Assembly: GCA_009929775.1 (NCBI GenBank)
Contig: RZZS01000022.1
Location: 1-35,044, forward strand
Reading direction: 5' to 3'
DNA length: 35,044 nt
From: Alphaproteobacteria bacterium
GTDB taxonomy: Bacteria > Pseudomonadota > Alphaproteobacteria > Micavibrionales > Micavibrionaceae
Shown: positions 389 to 18,368 of the stretch, in pieces
How positions within the stretch are numbered: position 1 is the stretch's first letter
Layout of the letters: each line of letters begins with the position of its first letter
Program-made: the position numbers and the translations under genes
Notes under the pieces: model-generated
The model's database searches: none
What the model saw: the letters and a program-made list of their open reading frames with translations, nothing else
What the model was told of the DNA's origin: nothing

Positions 389-420
389 CGCCATTCGTGA
401 TGAATGGCGTTTTTGTTTTT
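389..420 (+). terminator. Intrinsic terminator directly upstream of a start codon
   Basis: A perfect 8-bp stem (CGCCATTC 389-396, GAATGGCG 402-409) with a 5-base loop is followed by TTTTTGTTTTT (410-420). The Shine-Dalgarno sequence AGGGGG of the next gene begins at 421, the very next base. It must therefore end an upstream transcript or act as an attenuator inside the leader of that gene. Confidence 0.85.
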
Positions 421-433
421 AGGGGGAAGCGAA

Positions 434-1519
434 ATGGGAAAATCGAAGAAAGCGGACAAAGCCGGTGGGGCGTCCAGGTCAATGAAGGTCGAAGTCAACT
501 TCGAGAACGAATTCAAGATCGGCATCAAATGCACAGGCCACCAGGCAGGGAACGAGCCTGAAGTACTGAACGAGCTGTGGACTGCCTATCTCGCAAAGCG
601 GTTTGAGGAAAGCGAATCGGCTGTGCCCTTGCCCGTGATCCACCGCGCCAATGGCAGGAGCGTCAAGAGCCCGTTCTCGCAGGAAGTCAAGGGGTACCGC
701 GTTCGGGAATTCAGCATTGCCGCGGATGGCAAGCACCCCGGCAACGTCGAAATCCGGCAGGAGACAGGGGCAAAGCCAAAAACAATGATCAAGATCGGCA
801 ACGGCGCGGGACCGGATCGTCCGGCGCTGTCCCGCGAGGAATACATGATCCGGAATTTCCCGGCGCCGTTCGAAATGGGGAATCTGCCGAAAGCGGCCCG
901 TGAGCCGCTTGCCGAAGCCTTCGAACGCGCGCAGGTTGGCGACGTGATTCCCGCGCTTCAAAGCGAATCGTTCCGGCACAAGACGATTGTCCACGCGGTG
1001 GTCGAGGACCCGCAACTGGGGTCTTTGGAATGTGACATCGAGCTTGCAAAGGATATCGGCGCCGGCTGTACGATCGCGGGCCAGATCTGGGACATCAACG
1101 AGGTTGAAGGCGAGGTGAAGGCGGTTCGTATTTGCGGCCAAGGCGTCGATATCAAGGAGGATCCGGAGCAGGCCGGAATCACAAAGGACGACGTGCGAGT
1201 CATTTGCGATCGTGTACTCGCTGCGGAGCGGACGGAATTTCTCGAGTTCGCGCAGGCGTTTTTACAGGAGCGGAATCTGGCGCAAGCGGTACAGGTCTTC
1301 CCGGTCTATCACGCGAAATCGAGGCCGGGCATCGATCTGCTCTCTCCCCTGCTTCGTGATGGCGGCGATGTTGCCCGGACGGCGGTTGCGGCTGTGAAGG
1401 AAAGGGGCTTCCATGTCGTTCCGGAACTGGCAGAGCTTGCGCGGCAGAGGGCGGTCGAAGCCCGGTCGGCGCATGGATACGCTCCGCGGGACCGCCCTCC
1501 GGAACCGATTGCTGCGTAG
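434..1519 (+). CDS. Uncharacterised protein, 361 aa, faintly CYTH-like
   Basis: I do not recognise this protein as a named family. The start at 434 (MGKSKK) is chosen because AGGGGG at 421-426 stands 7 bases upstream; an earlier in-frame ATG at 404 lies inside the terminator stem. There is no signal peptide or membrane span; residues 1-16 are basic and low complexity. Residues 24-28 read ENEFK, matching the ExExK signature of CYTH/triphosphate tunnel enzymes. Later segments could be the strand pattern of that fold: GYRVREF (87-93), TMIKIG (117-122), ECDIELA (199-205) and NEVEGEV (222-228). Residues 255-345 look helical with an Arg-rich end. The CYTH link is inference from motifs only. The gene sits alone between a terminator and tRNA-Trp. 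Confidence 0.75.
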   Translation: MGKSKKADKAGGASRSMKVEVNFENEFKIGIKCTGHQAGNEPEVLNELWTAYLAKRFEESESAVPLPVIHRANGRSVKSPFSQEVKGYRVREFSIAADGKHPGNVEIRQETGAKPKTMIKIGNGAGPDRPALSREEYMIRNFPAPFEMGNLPKAAREPLAEAFERAQVGDVIPALQSESFRHKTIVHAVVEDPQLGSLECDIELAKDIGAGCTIAGQIWDINEVEGEVKAVRICGQGVDIKEDPEQAGITKDDVRVICDRVLAAERTEFLEFAQAFLQERNLAQAVQVFPVYHAKSRPGIDLLSPLLRDGGDVARTAVAAVKERGFHVVPELAELARQRAVEARSAHGYAPRDRPPEPIAA

Positions 1520-9970: not shown

Positions 9971-11791
9971 TTATGCCGCTTCCGGCAGGCCTTTCGCCAG
10001 ATGCTCGGCGGCGAGGGACTTGATTTCATCCATATACTGGTGGTACTCGGCGCTCCCGTGCACGGCGTAGTTCAGATTCTTGTACAGACCGGTAAGCCTG
10101 GTAAAGAAACGGCGCGCGGTCTCCTTGTCCGGGAAGCTGTAATCCTCTTCCACCAGTTCGCTGAGTAGCATGAAGCTCTCTTTCTGGCGCTGCATCGGGC
10201 AGGCGACGTCGACCTTGTCGAAGGCGTCCTGTTGCAGGAAGACCATATCCACGAACAACGCTTTCTGGAACACAACGAAGTCTTCGGTGGAAATGCCTTC
10301 CTCGCCGGTGACCTGCATCATCTTCCCGATCTTGTCACCCTGATCGAGCAGGGACTGGGCTGCCGCCACTTTGTCCGACCAGCCTTTGGCGAGATTGGAG
10401 TCATACCACTTCGACAACTGGCCATGATAGCGCGACCAGGAAATCAGCGGATCGATGGCCGGGAAAAAGCGCTTGTAGGCCCGGTCGTAGCTAAGGCCGA
10501 GGAAGCACTTGACCGTCCGCAGGGTCGCCTGCGTCACCGGCTCCTCGAAGTTGCCGCCTGCCGGAGAAACCGCGCCGACGATGCTCAGGCTGCCTTCGCT
10601 GCCATCGTTGTTGCGGAACTTGCCTGCCCGCTCGTAAAGGCCGCGGATGGACGAATCAAGATAGGCCGGGAACGCCTCTTCGCCCGGGATCTCTTCAAGG
10701 CGGCCCGAGGTCTCGCGGAGCGCCTGCGCCCAGCGCGAGGTTGAATCGGCCAGAACCAGAACCCGGTATCCCATTTGGCGGTAAAACTCGCCGAGGGTCA
10801 GGCCCGTATAGATCGAGGCCTCCCGGGCAGCCACCGGCATTGAGGATGTATTACAGATAATGATGGTCCGGTCCATCAGGCTGCCTTCGGTCTGAGGATC
10901 TTTAAGCTCCGGAAACTCAACGATAGTTTCCACAACTTCGCCGGCCCGTTCGCCGCAAGCGACTACAATCACGATATCGACCGCTGCGTACTTCGCCAGC
11001 AAATGTTGCAACACGGTCTTCCCCGCGCCAAAAGGTCCGGGCACGCAAGCAGTCCCGCCCTCCGCGACAGGGAAGAAGGTGTCGACGATCCGCTGGCCCG
11101 TCATCAGAGGTGTTTCCGGGAACAGGCGCTCGGTCTTGTACTGCTCAAGCATCCGGGCTGGAATGGGACGCCGCACCGGCCAGGTCTGGATCATTGTAAT
11201 GTCTTTGGTCTCGTCGTGCGTCTCGAGGCGGGCGACGACCGTATCCGGTGTAAAAGTTCCCTCCTGTATCCAGCTGACCTTGGCTTCGCCGCGCAGATTG
11301 AACGGGGCCATGATTTTAATCGTGTAGCGTCCTTCCGGCACGGTGCCCAGGACATCCCCCGCCTGTACCTTGTCGCCGACCTTGCGGGTGGGTGTGAAAG
11401 CCCACTTTTTCGCCGGATCTGTGGCAGGGTAGGTCACGCCGCGCGGCAGGAAGAATCCGTGCGCATCGGCAATATTGTGCAGCGGGTTTTGCAGCCCGTC
11501 GTAAACCTGTCCGAGAAGGCCGGGCCCGAGGGCGATGGACAGCATCTCGCCGCTGCCTTCGATCGGGTCGCCGACGGCCACGCCGCGGGTGTCTTCGTAA
11601 ACCTGAATGTCGGCGCGGTTTCCTTTGACCCGCAGAATTTCGGCTTTCAGCTTCACCGTTTCGCCTCGTGTATCCTTCGAGCAAACGTAAACGACTTCGT
11701 TTTTCATCAAGCCGCGAATGCCTGTGGTTTCGATGGACAGAACATCATCGTTGACCGCCACCACTCTTGCTACCTGCTGTGCCTTTTCCAT
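9971..11791 (-). CDS. ntpA: V/A-type ATPase catalytic subunit A
   Basis: A 606-aa catalytic subunit that hydrolyses or makes ATP in the peripheral V1/A1 headpiece. The P-loop GPFGAGKT is at 252-259, the catalytic glutamate is in ACGERAGE (Glu281), and later motifs MPVAAREAS and GRLEEIPGEEAFPAYL are canonical. The non-homologous bulge region typical of A subunits, absent from F-type beta, spans about 115-190. The start at 11791 (MEKAQQ) is preferred because AAGAAGGA stands 7 bases upstream; an in-frame TTG at 11809 overlaps that site. It is the last gene of the operon, whereas in many bacterial operons of this type A precedes B. Confidence 0.97.
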   Translation of the reverse strand: MEKAQQVARVVAVNDDVLSIETTGIRGLMKNEVVYVCSKDTRGETVKLKAEILRVKGNRADIQVYEDTRGVAVGDPIEGSGEMLSIALGPGLLGQVYDGLQNPLHNIADAHGFFLPRGVTYPATDPAKKWAFTPTRKVGDKVQAGDVLGTVPEGRYTIKIMAPFNLRGEAKVSWIQEGTFTPDTVVARLETHDETKDITMIQTWPVRRPIPARMLEQYKTERLFPETPLMTGQRIVDTFFPVAEGGTACVPGPFGAGKTVLQHLLAKYAAVDIVIVVACGERAGEVVETIVEFPELKDPQTEGSLMDRTIIICNTSSMPVAAREASIYTGLTLGEFYRQMGYRVLVLADSTSRWAQALRETSGRLEEIPGEEAFPAYLDSSIRGLYERAGKFRNNDGSEGSLSIVGAVSPAGGNFEEPVTQATLRTVKCFLGLSYDRAYKRFFPAIDPLISWSRYHGQLSKWYDSNLAKGWSDKVAAAQSLLDQGDKIGKMMQVTGEEGISTEDFVVFQKALFVDMVFLQQDAFDKVDVACPMQRQKESFMLLSELVEEDYSFPDKETARRFFTRLTGLYKNLNYAVHGSAEYHQYMDEIKSLAAEHLAKGLPEAA

Positions 11792-11830
11792 GTCGTTATC
11801 CTTCTTCAACTTTTGTCGTCAGTTTTTATT

Positions 11831-12529
11831 TCAGGTGGCTCCGCCTTCGAACAGTTTCCCGGCTCCGGCCATAACGGTTTCCTCGACCAGCGCCTGCACC
11901 CTGCTGGCGGCCACGGACGCGTCGTGAGCGCAGAAGCGGCGAATCAACTCCCATTGCAGAACGTAAAGAAAAACATCGGTCCGGCTATATATCTGGCCGC
12001 TTCGCGCTCTTGTAATGATGTTCCAGCTGTTTCGCAGCATCAGTTTCTCGAGTTCCTTCGCTTCCCGAAGGTCGAAAAGCCGTCTGGCCCGAACGATCCA
12101 CGGTTCCCGGTATTCCAGCCCCAGATAGGGCTGTGACCAGTTGAACCGCCCCTGAATGGCGGCGTCGCCAAAACCGAAATCTTCCTGCGGACCGGGGCAG
12201 TCTTTCCCCGCACTGCGCCGACGAAGCAGCGCCATGGCGGTCCTCTTCTCGAGAATTTCGAGCAGGACCTCCCTTAAAACCCGGTCGTCGATCTCATCCA
12301 GCGTCCGGCGCATTTTGCCGAGCAGAACCTGCTCTTCCTCATCACCATGACGCAGCCGGATCAGCCAGCGGGCTTTGGCGATCTGTTCCCGGTCTTCCTC
12401 CGAAAGCATCTCAAGGCACTTCGCCAGATCTTCGGATGTGAAGGGCAGTGACGTGTACTTGTCCACCCCCGTGAAGACCGGCAGAACGCTCAGGAAAAAG
12501 ACGTATATGTTCGAATGCGTTGAAGACAT
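11831..12529 (-). CDS. DUF2764 protein of the V-type ATPase operon
   Basis: A 232-aa soluble protein between ntpE and ntpA. The N-terminus (IYVFFLSVLPVF, then LPFTSEDLAKCLEMLSEEDRE) fits the DUF2764 family, found between E and A in V-type ATPase operons of Chlamydiae, Bacteroidetes and Spirochaetes. It is rich in Arg and Glu and predicted helical, with FNWSQPYLGLEYREPWIVRA at 129-148. These operons lack a recognisable C/d subunit, so the protein may act as the central-stalk connector; that is inference. Family assignment rests on pattern and position, not on a search. Confidence 0.75.
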   Translation of the reverse strand: MSSTHSNIYVFFLSVLPVFTGVDKYTSLPFTSEDLAKCLEMLSEEDREQIAKARWLIRLRHGDEEEQVLLGKMRRTLDEIDDRVLREVLLEILEKRTAMALLRRRSAGKDCPGPQEDFGFGDAAIQGRFNWSQPYLGLEYREPWIVRARRLFDLREAKELEKLMLRNSWNIITRARSGQIYSRTDVFLYVLQWELIRRFCAHDASVAASRVQALVEETVMAGAGKLFEGGAT

Positions 12530-12550
12530 GGGATCTTTTCGCCTTTCGGA

Positions 12551-13270
12551 CTAGCTCCTGATCAGACCTTCAACGAGGGCCCGGAACCGCGGCTGGAGGT
12601 GAGCCAGCAGCAGGTCGGCGATGTCCTCGTCCGTCAGCGCCAGTTCCAGCCCGCGCTGGTCGGCCCGCACGCGGATACCGGCGCGGCGGTCCGGGCGAAG
12701 CTGCAGATCGACGCCGTCCCGCAGCATCTTCGCGGCCTTTTCCGCTACGAAGTACGCCAGCGTGCCTTCTTCGGCCTTCTCTGTGTTTTTGCGCAACTGC
12801 TCAAGCGTGACAGGCTGCGATGGCAGGCCGATGGTAAGCTTGTCGTCCTTGCCAATCCTCGCCGCCTCGGTTGCCTTGCCAGCCACTGCAACGATCAGGT
12901 TCTGCAGCGTTGGTCCGCCGTTCAACTCCTGCGTAATTTCAGTACGCAGCAGGTTGGCGAACGACTGCCCAAGCTGTTCCTTGACCGACAAAAGCGCATC
13001 CCTGACCGCAACCCGAACCGAATCCTCGGCGGCCTGACGCAGGCGGGCCGATTCCTGTTCGGCGTCCGCGATCGTTGCTTCTGCCTGCTTGCGGGCGCTC
13101 GCAAGAATTTCCTGCGCTTCCCGTTCGGCCTGTTCGACGATCAGGTGTGCTTCCTTTCGGCCCTGCTCGATGCCGTCCTCGCGCAGGCGGCTTACCAGTC
13201 GGCCCACACCGTAGGCCACGGCGTCGGACCCTTCGGCGGGAGCGATTTGGGCCTCATTGTCAGTTGTCAT
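12551..13270 (-). CDS. ntpE: V/A-type ATPase peripheral-stalk subunit E
   Basis: A 239-aa protein with a long N-terminal helix (about residues 25-105) of alternating charged residues, including EQGRKEAHLIVEQAEREA, and a C-terminal globular part with LALTDEDIADLLLAHLQPRF. This is the build of subunit E, the outer stalk that holds the headpiece against subunit I. No separate G/H partner is visible. The start at 13270 follows AAGGA at about 9 bases; the gap from ntpK is 35 bases. Confidence 0.88.
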   Translation of the reverse strand: MTTDNEAQIAPAEGSDAVAYGVGRLVSRLREDGIEQGRKEAHLIVEQAEREAQEILASARKQAEATIADAEQESARLRQAAEDSVRVAVRDALLSVKEQLGQSFANLLRTEITQELNGGPTLQNLIVAVAGKATEAARIGKDDKLTIGLPSQPVTLEQLRKNTEKAEEGTLAYFVAEKAAKMLRDGVDLQLRPDRRAGIRVRADQRGLELALTDEDIADLLLAHLQPRFRALVEGLIRS

Positions 13271-13305
13271 AGCGAACCATCCTTAAGTTAATTTGGCCGG
13301 CACTA

Positions 13306-13746
13306 TCAAATGCCGGCGCTGATGACCAGGGCGAAGATGAAGGCGAACACGGCGAAGCCTTCGACGATCGCGGCCGGAGCCACGGAGATACCGAACACTT
13401 CCGGCTTGTTCTTGGCGACATTGATCGCGGCCGCGCAGCACTGGCCCTGACGCATGGCGCTCAGCAAAAGCGCAACCGCCGTCAGCATGCCGATCGCGAA
13501 AAGCGCCGGCGCATTTTCCGGGGTGACTTCACGGTTCAGCGTGAACATGACCACAATCCCGTAAATCGTCTGGGAGGAGGCCATGGCCGCCAGACCCATG
13601 AAACGGCCGTACCCGCCGTCGACATCGCTCAGCGCGCCGATCGCGGCGTGACCGGCGATCGAACAGCCGATGATACTGCCGATCGCTCCGAGCGCCATCG
13701 GCCCGAAAATCCCGGTCCAGCCGAGAATCATCATAATACTATCCAT
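13306..13746 (-). CDS. ntpK: V/A-type ATPase rotor-ring subunit K (c), Na+-type signature
   Basis: A 146-aa, four-helix proteolipid made of two fused hairpins. Only the last helix carries the ion-binding carboxylate, Glu129 in AAIVEGFAVFAF. The Na+ ligand set of Enterococcus hirae NtpK (Leu61, Thr64, Gln65, Gln110, Glu139, with Tyr68) maps to Met57-position hydrophobic, Ser58, Gln59, Gln100, Glu129 and Tyr62. The motifs are MASSQTIYG and RQGQCCAAAINVAKNKPE. The first hairpin has Gln where a proton-type ring would have a carboxylate. I infer Na+ translocation. Its start overlaps the ntpI end by 8 bases. Confidence 0.93.
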   Translation of the reverse strand: MDSIMMILGWTGIFGPMALGAIGSIIGCSIAGHAAIGALSDVDGGYGRFMGLAAMASSQTIYGIVVMFTLNREVTPENAPALFAIGMLTAVALLLSAMRQGQCCAAAINVAKNKPEVFGISVAPAAIVEGFAVFAFIFALVISAGI

Positions 13747-15541
13747 TGACGTACTTCTCCTTTTTTTCGAACGTTATGAATGGCTTGCCTTCGTCACGCA
13801 GACTCCAGCCGAAGAACTCGATCATGTTCAGCCTCAGCCCGTGAATGACGCCGCTGACGAGCGCCAGCAGGAAGTTGAGGCCGTGGCCGAGAACCAGAAT
13901 GACGATCGCCAGTACGGCACCGAACTCAGGCACGGCCACCCGCACCTGCCCGGCCAGATCGTTGAAGGTCAGTGCTAGCGCCGCGCTCGCGAGACCGAGC
14001 GCGAACAGACGCAGATAGCTCAGAACGTCGCCGAATGCCTTGGATACGCCGGTCAGTGCAAGAAAGCCGTCCGCCATCCGCATCAGCAGGGATTTCAGAT
14101 TTTCGATCCTGCGCTGGCTGGTGAAGAGAAAGACCAGTGTGAGGCCGCCAGCCAGAGTGGCGATCCCGGTCTGGTAGATGTCGCCGGTCCGGTCCCCGAA
14201 ACCGGCCCAGATCAATGACGCGCCGAGCAGCGTAACAAGCCAGCCAAAGGGCGAAAGCATGTTCCACGTGCCGCGTAACTGCCAGGCATGTACCAAATTG
14301 GCGACCATGACGTGGATAATCCCGATGGAGATCGTCAGATTTTGCATCGCCGTATAGTCGTTCATATCAAGAATATCAAGCCGCTTCAGAGCCGGGGTCG
14401 GTGGCTCGAGCCCGAAATAGCTTCCGATCAGAACCCCGTATACTGCCGAGGAAATCGAAAGCAGGATTCCTATCCGGCGAACCCGCAGACCGGTCTTCGA
14501 ACGGCCCAGCTTGCGCCAGAACAGAATGACCGCCAGCGCCAGCAAGAGCGCATAGCCGGCGTCCGAAACGATCAACGCAAAGAAAATCGCGAAGCTAAAC
14601 AGCAGGATCGAAGAGGGATCCCAGCTTCGATAGGCCGGAGTCTGATAGAAATTGACCAGATCTTCGCCCGGCGCCCAAAATTCCGTATTCTTTAACAGCG
14701 TTGGCGGTGTATCTTCCGGTTCCGGTTCGCTGATTTCCATCATCATGTCGAACCGGTCGGTCAGGGATTTCAATTCTTTAACCTGATCGGCGGCAGCCCA
14801 CGCACGCAGCGCGAAGAGCTGATCGTCGGCATAGCTTTCCCGTTCGACCCTCGTGCGCGCGGCATCGTCCTGGTGCCGGGCGATGGTTTTTTGCAGAAGG
14901 TATGCCCAGCGTGTGAGGCTCTGCCGCTCCGCTTCCAGCATGTCCAGTTCGACCTTGGCCTGTTCCAAATCCCGGTATAGCTCTGAAAGCGGCTTGCGGC
15001 CGATTGTGGCACGCTGCACCGGAAGATCGCGGTTCCGCGGCTCGTCTTTGGCGACAATCACCACATAGGCGTATTTCTTGCAGGTATGGACCACTTCATG
15101 ACAGTAGCCAGCCTTTGTAAAAGCCTTCCTTTTGCCGTGGGGTACCTTGTAAAACCAAAGGCGCAGGCCTGCCAGTTCCTCCGGGGGAGGCATGGTGAAA
15201 TCGCCCCATGGCTTGACTTCCTTGATCCGGTTTCGCAGGAAGGCTATCCGGTCGCGGATGGCCAGCAGCTTTTCCTGGTTGGCAAGGGCCTCGGTCGTTA
15301 CCTGCTTTTCGTCGAAAAGGCTTTCGTCCCGAACCTGATGTTTTCGCTTTCCCTTGGAGCGGGAAATATAGGACCAGGCCTTGAGCGTATCTGCGCTGAC
15401 TGTCCGGTCAAACATACCGGCCTCGTCCGGGCGTAACGGTACGACGTGGACCCGACCGATGTCCTGCAGAGACTGAAGGAGCGCCGCGCGGTCCTCGCGC
15501 AACGCCACCATGTCGACTTTTTTCAGCTTGACGATACTCAT
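13739..15541 (-). CDS. ntpI: V/A-type ATPase stator subunit I (a)
   Basis: A 600-aa subunit with a soluble, charged, coiled-coil-rich N-terminal half (to about residue 310) and a C-terminal domain of seven or eight membrane helices. The essential arginine lies in VLSYLRLFALGLA (Arg511), and the second conserved segment HGLRLNMIEFFGW (567-579) is present. It forms the ion half-channels against the K ring and anchors the peripheral stalks. Its ATG shares ATGA with the ntpD stop. Confidence 0.95.
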   Translation of the reverse strand: MSIVKLKKVDMVALREDRAALLQSLQDIGRVHVVPLRPDEAGMFDRTVSADTLKAWSYISRSKGKRKHQVRDESLFDEKQVTTEALANQEKLLAIRDRIAFLRNRIKEVKPWGDFTMPPPEELAGLRLWFYKVPHGKRKAFTKAGYCHEVVHTCKKYAYVVIVAKDEPRNRDLPVQRATIGRKPLSELYRDLEQAKVELDMLEAERQSLTRWAYLLQKTIARHQDDAARTRVERESYADDQLFALRAWAAADQVKELKSLTDRFDMMMEISEPEPEDTPPTLLKNTEFWAPGEDLVNFYQTPAYRSWDPSSILLFSFAIFFALIVSDAGYALLLALAVILFWRKLGRSKTGLRVRRIGILLSISSAVYGVLIGSYFGLEPPTPALKRLDILDMNDYTAMQNLTISIGIIHVMVANLVHAWQLRGTWNMLSPFGWLVTLLGASLIWAGFGDRTGDIYQTGIATLAGGLTLVFLFTSQRRIENLKSLLMRMADGFLALTGVSKAFGDVLSYLRLFALGLASAALALTFNDLAGQVRVAVPEFGAVLAIVILVLGHGLNFLLALVSGVIHGLRLNMIEFFGWSLRDEGKPFITFEKKEKYVNG

Positions 15542-16137
15542 GCCGCTTCCGCCTGCCCTCTGCTCTTTGCGAGCTTGGCCCGCACGATTCCCGCGCGTTC
15601 CTCGTCCGCCAGATAGATTTTGATCTTCTTGATGTCCGCCTGCGTTTCGGGGATCAGGACCTTGTCGAACAGGTTGACCCTTTGGGTAACCTTGCGCACG
15701 GCAATCTCCAGAAGGCGCAGCCGTTCTTCCGCCACCTGTCTTTGCAGACGCAGCCGGACGAGGTCCTTAAGCTTGTAAACGAGAATGTCGATCCATTGCG
15801 GCTGGGCGAACCAGCTGTATTCCTGCTGAACGAGGTCAAAGTCACGCAGAACCGGGAGGCGGGTGCCAAGCACGTTCTGCTCGCCGATATCGACTTTTTC
15901 CAGCCGGATCAGGCCGTCGAGCTTGAGCTTCCGGTCACCCACCATCGGGATCTGTTCGCCGATATCGCCGCTGAGTGCCTCGTAGTCGGCAATAAGTTTT
16001 TCAATTTGCGTGGCTTCTCGCGCCTTTTCGACAAGAAGCTGCTGACGCTTCATTTCCAGCGTCGGCAAAAAGCGCTTGTACAGCTTGAGCTGCTTGTTCT
16101 TCTGGTTCAGCGCACTTTTGTTAAGCGTGGATGCCAT
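15538..16137 (-). CDS. ntpD: V/A-type ATPase central-shaft subunit D
   Basis: A 199-aa protein with the two long helices of subunit D at its ends (residues about 10-75 and 125-199) and conserved starting segments (NKSALNQKNKQLKLYKRFLPTL at 6-27, cited by position only for its K/L-rich spacing). It is the rotor shaft inside the A/B headpiece. No separate subunit F is found in the operon. The 25-base gap from ntpB holds no good Shine-Dalgarno sequence, so translation may depend on coupling. Confidence 0.9.
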   Translation of the reverse strand: MASTLNKSALNQKNKQLKLYKRFLPTLEMKRQQLLVEKAREATQIEKLIADYEALSGDIGEQIPMVGDRKLKLDGLIRLEKVDIGEQNVLGTRLPVLRDFDLVQQEYSWFAQPQWIDILVYKLKDLVRLRLQRQVAEERLRLLEIAVRKVTQRVNLFDKVLIPETQADIKKIKIYLADEERAGIVRAKLAKSRGQAEAA

Positions 16138-16162
16138 TGTTTTGTGTCTGTTACGCGATTAA

Positions 16163-17509
16163 TCAGGCTGCCTTTTTAACGTCCTTGGGAAAATACATCT
16201 TGATGAGGTTTTCCTTCATCAGCAGCTCGTCCGGCTCGAAACATTCGGCCAGCGTCTGCCACGCGAGATCGAGGCATTGTTCCAAAGGCATGGCGACGTT
16301 GATGTCCATGAAGCGGCTCTTGAACAGTTCGCCGTAGCGTAGCAGGCGGTGGTCGTAGTCGGTGAGTTCGAACGCCATCGCCTTTTTCTGTTCAGCATCG
16401 CGCGCGCCCGAATACAGGCGGATCATCGTGTTCATCAGCGCGCCATGGTCCTCGCGGGTTCTGTCGCCGACCACGAATTGCTTCAGACGGGAGAGCGAAC
16501 CGAACGGATCGATCACCCCGCCGTGCAGGTAGAACTGGCCCTCGGTGATGTAGCCAGTATTGTCGGGGATCGGGTGCGTCACATCGTTGCCGGGCATGGT
16601 GGTCACGGTCAGCAGTGTCACCGAACCGGCGCCCTTGTACTGGCAGGCCTTCTCGTAGCGGCGGGCGAGCTGGGAATACAGGTCGCCCATATAGCCGCGG
16701 TTTGCGGGGATCCGCTCCAGCGAAACCCCGATTTCCTTCAGCGCGTCCGCGAAGGCGGTCATGTCGGTCAGCAGAACGAGCACGCGCTTGTTCTCTTCCG
16801 TCGCCAGCTTTTCCGCGACCGCGAGGGCCATGTCCGGCACAAGAACGGCCTCGACGACCGGGTCGGACGCCTGGTGGACGAACATGACAGTCCGGCCGAA
16901 CACGCCCGCGTCCTCGAAGGTCTGCTTGAAATAGTGATAATCGTCGAAGATCAGCCCGATTCCGCCGAAGACCACGACGTCGGCGTCGGTGTTGACGGCG
17001 ATGCGGGCCATGAGCTGGTTGAACGGCTCGCCCGCCACCGAGAAGATCGGCATCTTCTGGCTCTCGACCAGTGTGTTGAACATGTCGATCATCGGGATGT
17101 CGGTCCGGACCATCCGGGTCGGCAGAATGCGCCGCACCGGGTTGACGGTCGGTGTGCCGATGGGCGTGCGCGGGTCGCTGTCCAGATTGGCGCCAGCGTC
17201 GATCGGCACGCCCGCGCCATTAAAAATCCGGCCAAAGATGTTGCCGGAGAAAATCGTGTCCATGAATTTGCCGAGGAAGCGGACTTCGGCCTGACTGGAG
17301 ATGCCCTTGGTTCCCCGGAAGACCTGCAGCGACACTGTCTCGCCTTCGAGCCGGATTACCTGGGCCAGAGACTGGTTTCCGGCGTCTTCAACGAGCGCGA
17401 GCTCTCCGTTACAGGTGACGGGTGCATCCATTGTATCCGGGACGCGCACTTTCAGGATATCGCCGCTGATCTCGGTAATGTTGTTGTAGCTCACAAGATT
17501 TTGTGACAT
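16163..17509 (-). CDS. ntpB: V/A-type ATPase non-catalytic subunit B
   Basis: A 448-aa subunit that alternates with A in the headpiece. The expected P-loop is degenerate (FSVAGEPFNQLMARIA, about 156-171), as in B subunits. Other signatures are TPTVNPVRRILPTRMVRT, LLTDMTAFADALKEIG, IPANRGYMGDLYSQLA and TMPGNDVTHPIPDNTGYITEGQ. The start at 17509 (MSQNLVSYNN) is chosen because AGAGG lies 7 bases upstream; the frame is open 13 codons further but without a ribosome binding site. It is the first gene of the operon. Confidence 0.96.
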   Translation of the reverse strand: MSQNLVSYNNITEISGDILKVRVPDTMDAPVTCNGELALVEDAGNQSLAQVIRLEGETVSLQVFRGTKGISSQAEVRFLGKFMDTIFSGNIFGRIFNGAGVPIDAGANLDSDPRTPIGTPTVNPVRRILPTRMVRTDIPMIDMFNTLVESQKMPIFSVAGEPFNQLMARIAVNTDADVVVFGGIGLIFDDYHYFKQTFEDAGVFGRTVMFVHQASDPVVEAVLVPDMALAVAEKLATEENKRVLVLLTDMTAFADALKEIGVSLERIPANRGYMGDLYSQLARRYEKACQYKGAGSVTLLTVTTMPGNDVTHPIPDNTGYITEGQFYLHGGVIDPFGSLSRLKQFVVGDRTREDHGALMNTMIRLYSGARDAEQKKAMAFELTDYDHRLLRYGELFKSRFMDINVAMPLEQCLDLAWQTLAECFEPDELLMKENLIKMYFPKDVKKAA

Positions 17510-17567
17510 CCGGTACCTCTTCCCTATAGCCCATCCGACAATGCGCACGCTTCCGTAAGATCTGTGC

Positions 17568-17596
17568 GCGCCTTTTTCTTTGACAGGCGCTTTTTT
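17568..17596 (-). promoter_or_regulatory. Hairpin in the V-ATPase operon leader
   Basis: GCGCCT (17568-17573) and AGGCGC (17585-17590) can pair across an 11-base loop inside the predicted 5' leader of ntpB. On the minus strand AGGCGC continues into GCGCAC, which can pair instead with GTGCGC at 17543-17548, so two stems compete. Read on the plus strand the same hairpin is followed by six T residues and could stop transcription from the other side. Confidence 0.3.
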
Positions 17597-17608
17597 AATC
17601 GGCCTGAC

Positions 17609-17635
17609 TTATATAGCAAGAAAAAAAAGACGCAA
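17609..17635 (-). promoter_or_regulatory. Candidate V-ATPase operon promoter
   Basis: On the minus strand TTGCTATATAA (complement of 17609-17619) is an extended -10 element (TGCTATATA). A TTGCGT lies 14 bases upstream, which is short for a -35, so the extended -10 would have to carry the promoter. A start near 17602 gives a leader of about 93 bases before ntpB. The stretch 17636-17810 holds no gene I can support. Confidence 0.45.
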
Positions 17636-17810
17636 CCCGAAAGAAAGTCCATGGCTGCTGCCATAGCTTCTCTCACTTTTGGGCCTTTTCCTTGCACGAA
17701 ACCGAAGGCGAACGCAAGACAATCCTTTTTTTTCGTGTGCCCTTATGCACTTAAGCGGGTTGCGCGGGCTGGGATTTTTCCATGGAAAGATACAGAATGA
17801 GAAGATACCG

Positions 17811-17838
17811 AAGAAAAAAAGGCCCCGCAGGGCCTTTC
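17811..17838 (-). terminator. Intrinsic terminator of the 29-codon gene
   Basis: An 8-bp stem AAAGGCCC/GGGCCTTT (17818-17825 with 17830-17837) with a CGCA tetraloop is followed, on the minus strand, by TTTTTTTCTT. It begins one base after the stop of the small gene at 17839-17928. On the plus strand the tail is only TTTCTC, so it works mainly for minus-strand transcripts. Confidence 0.88.
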
Positions 17839-17928
17839 TCATTTGTTGTGGTTTTTCTTGCGACGTGCGGCGAAAAGTCCCCCGAGGGCGGCGATGCCAG
17901 CCATGACAGGCAGGATTTTTTTGTTCAT
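17839..17928 (-). CDS. Small membrane peptide, 29 aa
   Basis: A complete miniature gene: GGAGG, 5 bases, then ATG at 17928, 29 codons and TGA, followed at once by a strong terminator. The peptide starts MNKK, has an apolar stretch from residue 5 to 21 (Gly/Ala/Leu-rich, with Met9 and Phe19) and ends RRKKNHNK. That layout suits a single membrane-spanning or amphipathic peptide with a strongly basic tail. I do not recognise a family. It sits between the V-ATPase promoter and secE, facing away from secE. The ribosome binding site plus terminator make it a real transcription unit; function is unknown. Confidence 0.68.
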   Translation of the reverse strand: MNKKILPVMAGIAALGGLFAARRKKNHNK

Positions 17929-18026
17929 TTCGTCCTCCGATCTCCTTGCTTTTTGGTGTATCAGTGTTCCGATATCCGGCCATTCTGCCAACGGGTTTCG
18001 AAGTTTGCTGTTCCAGGCGGGCAGAA

Positions 18027-18055
18027 TTGAAAGTTGGTGTCGATTTTTCTGGCAT
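18027..18055 (+). promoter_or_regulatory. Possible secE promoter
   Basis: TTGAAA at 18027-18032 is separated by 17 bases from TGGCAT at 18050-18055. The -35 is good and the -10 poor. Some promoter is needed here because the normal upstream context (tRNA-Trp) is 16.5 kb away; this is the best pair I found between 17929 and 18170. Confidence 0.3.
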
Positions 18056-18170
18056 CAGGATTCACTTTGCGCTAAGAAGATGCATTCCCATGAAAACGTG
18101 TCGAAATTTCTCCCGCGGGGTCCGCGACGACACGAACCTTTTGTGGAAGCGATCAAAAAGGAACGAGGAC

Positions 18171-18368
18171 ATGGCAAAGACAGGACCGGTCGAATATCTG
18201 CATCAGGTGCGCAACGAAATGAAGAAGGTGACGTGGCCGTCGCGCAAGGAAACAACCGTCAGCACGATCGCCGTGTTCATTATGGTCACAATCGCCGCGA
18301 TTTTTCTGTTCTTTGCCGATCAGGTGATGGCGTTCGTCGTGCGTCTTCTTCTCGGCATCGGCAACTAG
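18171..18368 (+). CDS. secE: Preprotein translocase subunit SecE
   Basis: A 65-aa single-span protein of the SecYEG channel. The amphipathic surface helix with the signature RNEMKKVTWPSRKET is at 14-28, followed by one membrane helix (about 31-50). The short form without extra N-terminal spans is usual outside Enterobacteria. The start at 18171 is chosen for length and the nearby GAGGAC/AAGGA. nusG follows after 48 bases. Confidence 0.96.
   Translation: MAKTGPVEYLHQVRNEMKKVTWPSRKETTVSTIAVFIMVTIAAIFLFFADQVMAFVVRLLLGIGN

What the first reader, a model, noticed from the sequence alone, without database searches (positions are those of the whole stretch)
17811..17928. Complete 29-codon gene with its own ribosome site and terminator
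GGAGG-5 bases-ATG, 29 codons, TGA, then an 8-bp terminator with a seven-T tail one base later. The peptide has a basic start, a Gly/Ala-rich apolar middle and an RRKK tail. Such genes are missed by routine annotation. Form suggests a small membrane protein or a peptide toxin.
Basis: seen in the sequence. Interest (0 to 1): 0.55.

Follow-up and report, generated by a model that had tools for sequence, protein, structure and literature searches.

The report
Orphan 29-residue candidate membrane peptide gene
A tiny possible gene for a 29-residue, membrane-type peptide sits between a rotary-ATPase operon and the secE gene of a probable alphaproteobacterium; it looks real by its signals but has no detectable relatives, so it is a plausible but ordinary and unproven small gene.

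Summary
On the minus strand, window 17928-17839 reads GGAGG, 5 nt, ATG, 29 codons, TGA, then an 8-bp hairpin one base later with seven Ts, three of them in the stem. Among small-ORF candidates in gaps from about 0.63 Mb of the same genome it has the highest codon score and the closest terminator. Its codon choice is gene-like, but part of that score comes from its hydrophobic make-up: 30 of 179 hydrophobic wrong-frame windows score as high. No homologue was found in 103 other family genomes, 141 other order genomes or 384 other class genomes; the genus has no second species, so conservation cannot be tested. A membrane peptide is the likeliest product; toxin status is unsupported. A terminating ribosome would mask such a hairpin (PMC4824070), so a translation-gated terminator upstream of the V-ATPase/Mrp genes is an untested alternative. 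Interest is low to modest.

The parts
17839..17928 (-). 29-codon ORF plus TGA, candidate single-span membrane peptide
   Evidence: coding score 10.0 and gene-like codon choice; hydrophobic-matched control weakens this
17934..17938 (-). Shine-Dalgarno GGAGG, 5 nt before ATG
   Evidence: read; the pattern GGAGG-N5-ATGAANAARAARATH occurs once in the whole genome, here
17814..17837 (-). intrinsic-terminator-like hairpin (stem 17818-17837) and T run (17814-17820)
   Evidence: the plus-strand reading also folds but its tail is CTCATTTGTT
16163..17512 (-). V-type ATPase subunit B, first gene of the downstream operon on the same strand
   Evidence: Pfam PF00006, PF22919, PF02874
18171..18368 (+). secE, divergent neighbour
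   Evidence: Pfam SecE 3.5e-20 on 18111-18368; start aligned with 29 relatives
18038..18170 (+). secE promoter/leader region that aligns with relatives; the small ORF lies outside it
   Evidence: alignment of 30 loci

Best explanation
A lineage-restricted, translated small gene. A short transcript from the secE-side half of the divergent gap is read from GGAGG-ATG into a 29-residue peptide that inserts in the inner membrane as one short helix held between two basic ends, and transcription stops at the hairpin. Shown: the sequence signals and their rarity together. Inferred: transcription, translation, membrane insertion. The likeliest role is that of a small accessory or modulating membrane peptide, as for other bacterial single-span microproteins. 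Association with the neighbouring V-ATPase/Mrp membrane machinery is a guess from position only.
For: Exact SD-start-stop-terminator order. Highest coding score of 24 SD-led small ORFs in 211 gaps of 628,583 bases of the same genome. The second best of those is a known KGG-family small protein (Pfam 1.4e-9), so the scan does find real small genes. Coding score 10.0 bits: 57% of 2529 in-frame 28-codon windows of called genes score that or less, against 0.2% of 2480 open off-frame windows scoring that or more and 0.19% of 1072 shuffled candidates. Four other ORFs overlapping the spot that were scored give -18 to -92. Codon choice within synonyms 0.675 against 0.542 for random synonyms, reached by 3.5% of 5000 draws; median of real genes 0.648. 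The upstream in-frame extension to a TTG scores -2.7, so the coding-like signal starts at the ATG.
Against: No homologue anywhere searched. Much of the coding score is hydrophobic composition: 30 of 179 wrong-frame windows of similar hydrophobicity score 10 or more. SD-led small ORFs are no commoner than in shuffles. No promoter-like site in the gap at threshold; the best relaxed one upstream is 8 of 12. The terminator is closer to the stop than at 16 of 16 other gene ends with a terminator.
Confidence: 0.45

Rival explanations
1. Chance ORF. The minus-strand hairpin ends an untranslated RNA, or a divergent transcript from the secE side, and the 29-codon frame is an accident beside it.
For: SD-led ORFs of this size occur by chance at the observed rate, and in 16% of shuffles of this gap; no conservation; hydrophobic composition inflates the coding score; DNA matches elsewhere in the order are short, and some of the best fall on the terminator stretch.
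Against: Best coding score of 24 candidates, gene-like synonymous choice, SD and stop fitted to the hairpin; combination seen in 0 of 2000 local shuffles.
Confidence: 0.3
2. Translation-gated terminator. The ORF is a leader peptide: a ribosome ending at the stop covers the hairpin that starts 0-1 nt later, so translated transcripts read through into the V-ATPase B gene about 300 nt on, and untranslated ones stop.
For: Stop-to-stem distance 0-1 nt against 17-53 nt at 15 of 16 other terminator-bearing gene ends (5 nt at the remaining one, a poor hairpin). Passages of PMC4824070 report near-complete repression of a terminator several bp from a stop codon. V-ATPase operon lies next on the same strand.
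Against: The operon may have its own promoter after the hairpin (TTGCGT-16-TATAAG at about 17635, 8 of 12, as weak as all others there). A second terminator-like hairpin lies at 17666-17649. No alternative antiterminator fold was sought. A clean peptide-like frame with a basic tail is not needed for a leader.
Confidence: 0.15
3. Type I toxin of a toxin-antitoxin pair: a short membrane-damaging peptide held off by an antisense RNA.
For: Length 29, one apolar segment, lysines at the C-terminus; TisB and ZorO are 29 residues, and TisB, ZorO, AapA1 and SprG1 depend on C-terminal lysines (PMC11449926 passages).
Against: No toxin family match; no antisense promoter at threshold; single copy; net charge +7 and no acidic residue, TisB is +1.
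Confidence: 0.07

Closest known systems
Single-span bacterial microproteins (e.g. SEP6 and SEP16 of Sinorhizobium meliloti, PMC10117765, passages read)
   Same: Very short, predicted membrane-located, missed by annotation, in Alphaproteobacteria
   Different: Those are shown translated and conserved in Hyphomicrobiales; this one is neither
Type I toxins TisB and ZorO (29 aa; PMC11449926 passages)
   Same: Length, one hydrophobic segment, C-terminal lysines
   Different: No antisense RNA signal, no sequence match, far more basic
LPXTG/NPXTG-type C-terminal anchors and DUF6520 (NCBIfam TIGR01167, NF033846; Pfam PF20130)
   Same: Apolar stretch followed by RRKK (anchors) or basic start plus apolar stretch (DUF6520) gives weak profile matches (E 0.0061, 0.0036, 0.00075)
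   Different: NF033846 and PF20130 fall below their cut-offs; TIGR01167 scores 17.2 against a cut-off of 15.9 but at E 0.0061, with no sortase motif and no parent protein; a resemblance of composition
Leader peptides of transcription attenuators (general knowledge)
   Same: Short ORF with a terminator next to it, upstream of an operon on the same strand
   Different: No alternative fold, stall sequence or downstream dependence shown

Membership tests
Translated small protein gene | SD, start, stop and transcript end in order | tested here: met
Translated small protein gene | Codon use like the genome's genes | tested here: inconclusive
   (3.5% of synonymous draws as good); weakened
Translated small protein gene | Frame conserved in relatives | tested here: inconclusive
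   no homologue, but no second species in the genus to test close conservation
Translated small protein gene | Ribosome or peptide evidence | not testable with these tools
   no expression data
Type I toxin | Antisense RNA gene with its own promoter | tested here: not met
   no promoter-like site in 17513-18170, (consensus scan only)
Type I toxin | Sequence relation to a known toxin family | tested here: not met
Type I toxin | Growth arrest on expression | not testable with these tools
   needs a bench test
Leader peptide / attenuator | Hairpin within the ribosome's reach of the stop | tested here: met
   0-1 nt
Leader peptide / attenuator | Regulated gene lacks a promoter of its own below the hairpin | tested here: inconclusive
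   only weak 8-of-12 sites
LPXTG-type anchor | Sortase motif before the apolar segment in a larger exported protein | tested here: not met
   29-residue ORF with no such motif
Rfam Atu_C8 sRNA | Score over the gathering cut-off (50 bits) | tested here: not met
   20.5 bits, E 0.06 to 0.21, central part of the model unmatched

The most novel reading that the evidence does not exclude
A lineage-specific switch in which translation of a 29-codon leader holds open a terminator and so lets transcription enter a V-ATPase (and perhaps Mrp antiporter) operon of a kind whose B subunit was found in no other genome of the family.
Probability: 0.1. Interest if true: 0.5.

Novelty: new member of a known kind. 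Interest (0 to 1): 0.2.

Why it matters
If translated, it adds one orphan to the many very short membrane peptides that annotation misses; its value lies in its position next to an ATPase operon absent elsewhere in the family. If the hairpin is gated by translation, it would be a compact, easily tested case of an ordinary-looking stop-terminator pair acting as a switch. As it stands, one genome and no expression data make it a minor finding.

Tried and rejected
Homologues: weak peptide hits (17 places taken together; 16 of 17 read, L007 left out) all lie in other frames of 41 to 1009 aa, mostly hydrophobic stretches or signal-type starts; rejected. Small ORFs near V-ATPase B in 80 loci from other bacteria: best non-self score 29 against 146; rejected. 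RF02502 Atu_C8: followed to 385 class genomes, 1 over cut-off and none here, and the alignment rests on the hairpin and the ends; rejected. A duplicated tRNA-Trp end as island boundary: no copy found near the small ORF; rejected. Consensus fold of secE leaders: RNAalifold gave no structure on that alignment.

Errors of mine: one search covered the wrong side of secE in the 14 loci that lie on the minus strand; redone. One search missed the target because a spurious long ORF was called over the gap; gene calling was changed to codon scores, secE was added by hand, and the terminator rule was loosened slightly after seeing this. In one search the best hairpin per gene end was taken, with stems starting up to 79 nt after the stop. 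Coding model: trained on 310 kb that include the window.

Full report
What is there. On the minus strand, 17928-17839 encodes MNKKILPVMAGIAALGGLFAARRKKNHNK with GGAGG five bases before ATG, TGA, and a hairpin from 17837 to 17818 starting one base after the stop. The seven Ts are 17820-17814; three of them also pair in the stem, and folded alone the stem grows to 11 bp and takes in the last two bases of the stop codon (-17.6 kcal/mol, z -2.56).

Setting. The ORF lies in a gap between V-ATPase subunit B (16163-17512, minus; first of B, D, I, K, E, an unmatched 232-aa frame, A; K and E are my labels from position and sequence) and secE (18171-18368, plus), with Mrp-type antiporter genes below the ATPase genes and nusG, rpoB, rpoC, rpsG and EF-G genes beyond secE. 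The RpoB best match in the PDB is 7ye1 at 2120 bits against 1746 for the next; 7ye1 is a Caulobacter enzyme by recall, so the host is probably an alphaproteobacterium. A V-ATPase B of this kind was found in 1 of 104 family genomes, this one. In an alignment of 30 secE upstream regions (29 relatives and this one; 89 other family genomes had a secE match, and loci were returned for 29) a promoter/leader region just before secE aligns, at about 18038-18170 here, and the small ORF lies outside it. No similar small ORF with an SD was found within up to 1500 nt upstream of secE in those 29 (best non-self score 36, self 146).

Is it a gene? SD-led ORFs of 20-60 codons are as common in real gaps (10 in 35.9 kb) as in shuffles (mean 10.7), so the ORF with its SD alone proves nothing. 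With a terminator within 15 nt of the stop it is 1 of those 10, and 0 in 100 shuffles of all gaps. A codon-score model gives 10.0 bits, like real genes and unlike four overlapping frames that were scored (-18 to -92). Off-frame open windows reach 10 in 0.2% of 2480 cases and in-frame windows of called genes have a median of 9.1 (n = 2529). The fairest control is against me: among 179 wrong-frame windows of similar hydrophobicity 30 (17%) score 10 or more. The synonymous test, free of that bias, is mild: 3.5% of 5000 draws. In a larger sample of 628,583 bases it ranks first of 24 candidates by score; the second is a KGG small protein (Pfam 1.4e-9), a fair positive control.

Relatives. Matches at the thresholds used: 3 of 104 family genomes (E 0.1), 12 of 142 order genomes (E 0.5), 5 of 385 class genomes (E 0.1), each count including this genome itself. 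Seventeen non-self places were returned; the 16 read lie in other frames. Plasmid and phage collections: none. The genus holds one species. A DNA search over 142 order genomes gave only short matches, several of the best over the hairpin stretch. Profile libraries give only weak, composition-type matches: DUF6520 0.00075 and NPXTG anchor 0.0036, both below cut-off; LPXTG anchor 0.0061, just over its score cut-off of 15.9 but without a sortase motif. PHROGs and PADLOC: none.

The odd point. Of 276 gene ends in the sample 16 carry a terminator by my rule; 15 start 17-53 nt after the stop and one, a weaker hairpin, at 5 nt. The target's starts at 0-1 nt. Passages of PMC4824070 say a terminator several bp after a stop codon is almost wholly repressed by the ribosome; the same paper's introduction says known stop-terminator distances start at zero, so short spacing does occur elsewhere. 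So if the ORF is well translated its terminator should leak into the ATPase operon; if the terminator works, translation may be poor. That is either a weakness of the gene reading or the basis of a switch; nothing here decides. Promoters in the gap are all weak by consensus.

Toxin reading. The length, apolar segment and lysine tail resemble TisB and ZorO (PMC11449926 passages), but there is no antisense promoter at threshold, no toxin family match, and the charge (+7 against +1) differs. I hold it unlikely. PMC11264685 passages were used for the definition of type I systems only; PMC10117765 passages for the comparison with known alphaproteobacterial small proteins. Other papers were seen as search listings only.

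Verdict. Observation confirmed; small-membrane-peptide reading plausible (0.45), chance ORF next (0.3), gated terminator (0.15), toxin (0.07).

Noticed in passing
window 9971-17512 (minus): V-ATPase operon (B, D, I, K, E, unmatched 232-aa frame, A) beside a Mrp-type antiporter set; the B subunit is found in 1 of 104 family genomes and its close relatives are in marine Proteobacteria, cyanobacteria and others, so it looks laterally acquired next to secE.
   Followed up: partly
window 18038-18170 and loci L092-L120 upstream of secE: secE leaders in the family share an ATTCCCTGACA-like box followed in many by GGTTC...CGAACC arms, perhaps a structured leader; an automatic consensus fold gave nothing.
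   Followed up: partly
L142:14955-15116 (minus): 53-aa KGG-repeat small protein ORF (Pfam KGG 1.4e-9) with a terminator 18 nt after the stop, found by the same background scan.
   Followed up: partly
G000:C21:499-669: A second, divergent SecE match (39% identity) in the same assembly, perhaps contamination (3.72% estimated).
   Followed up: no
window 404-1519 and 11831-12529: Two good-scoring frames (371 aa and 232 aa) without a Pfam match; the second sits inside the V-ATPase operon, and similar frames lie in some relatives' operons.
   Followed up: no
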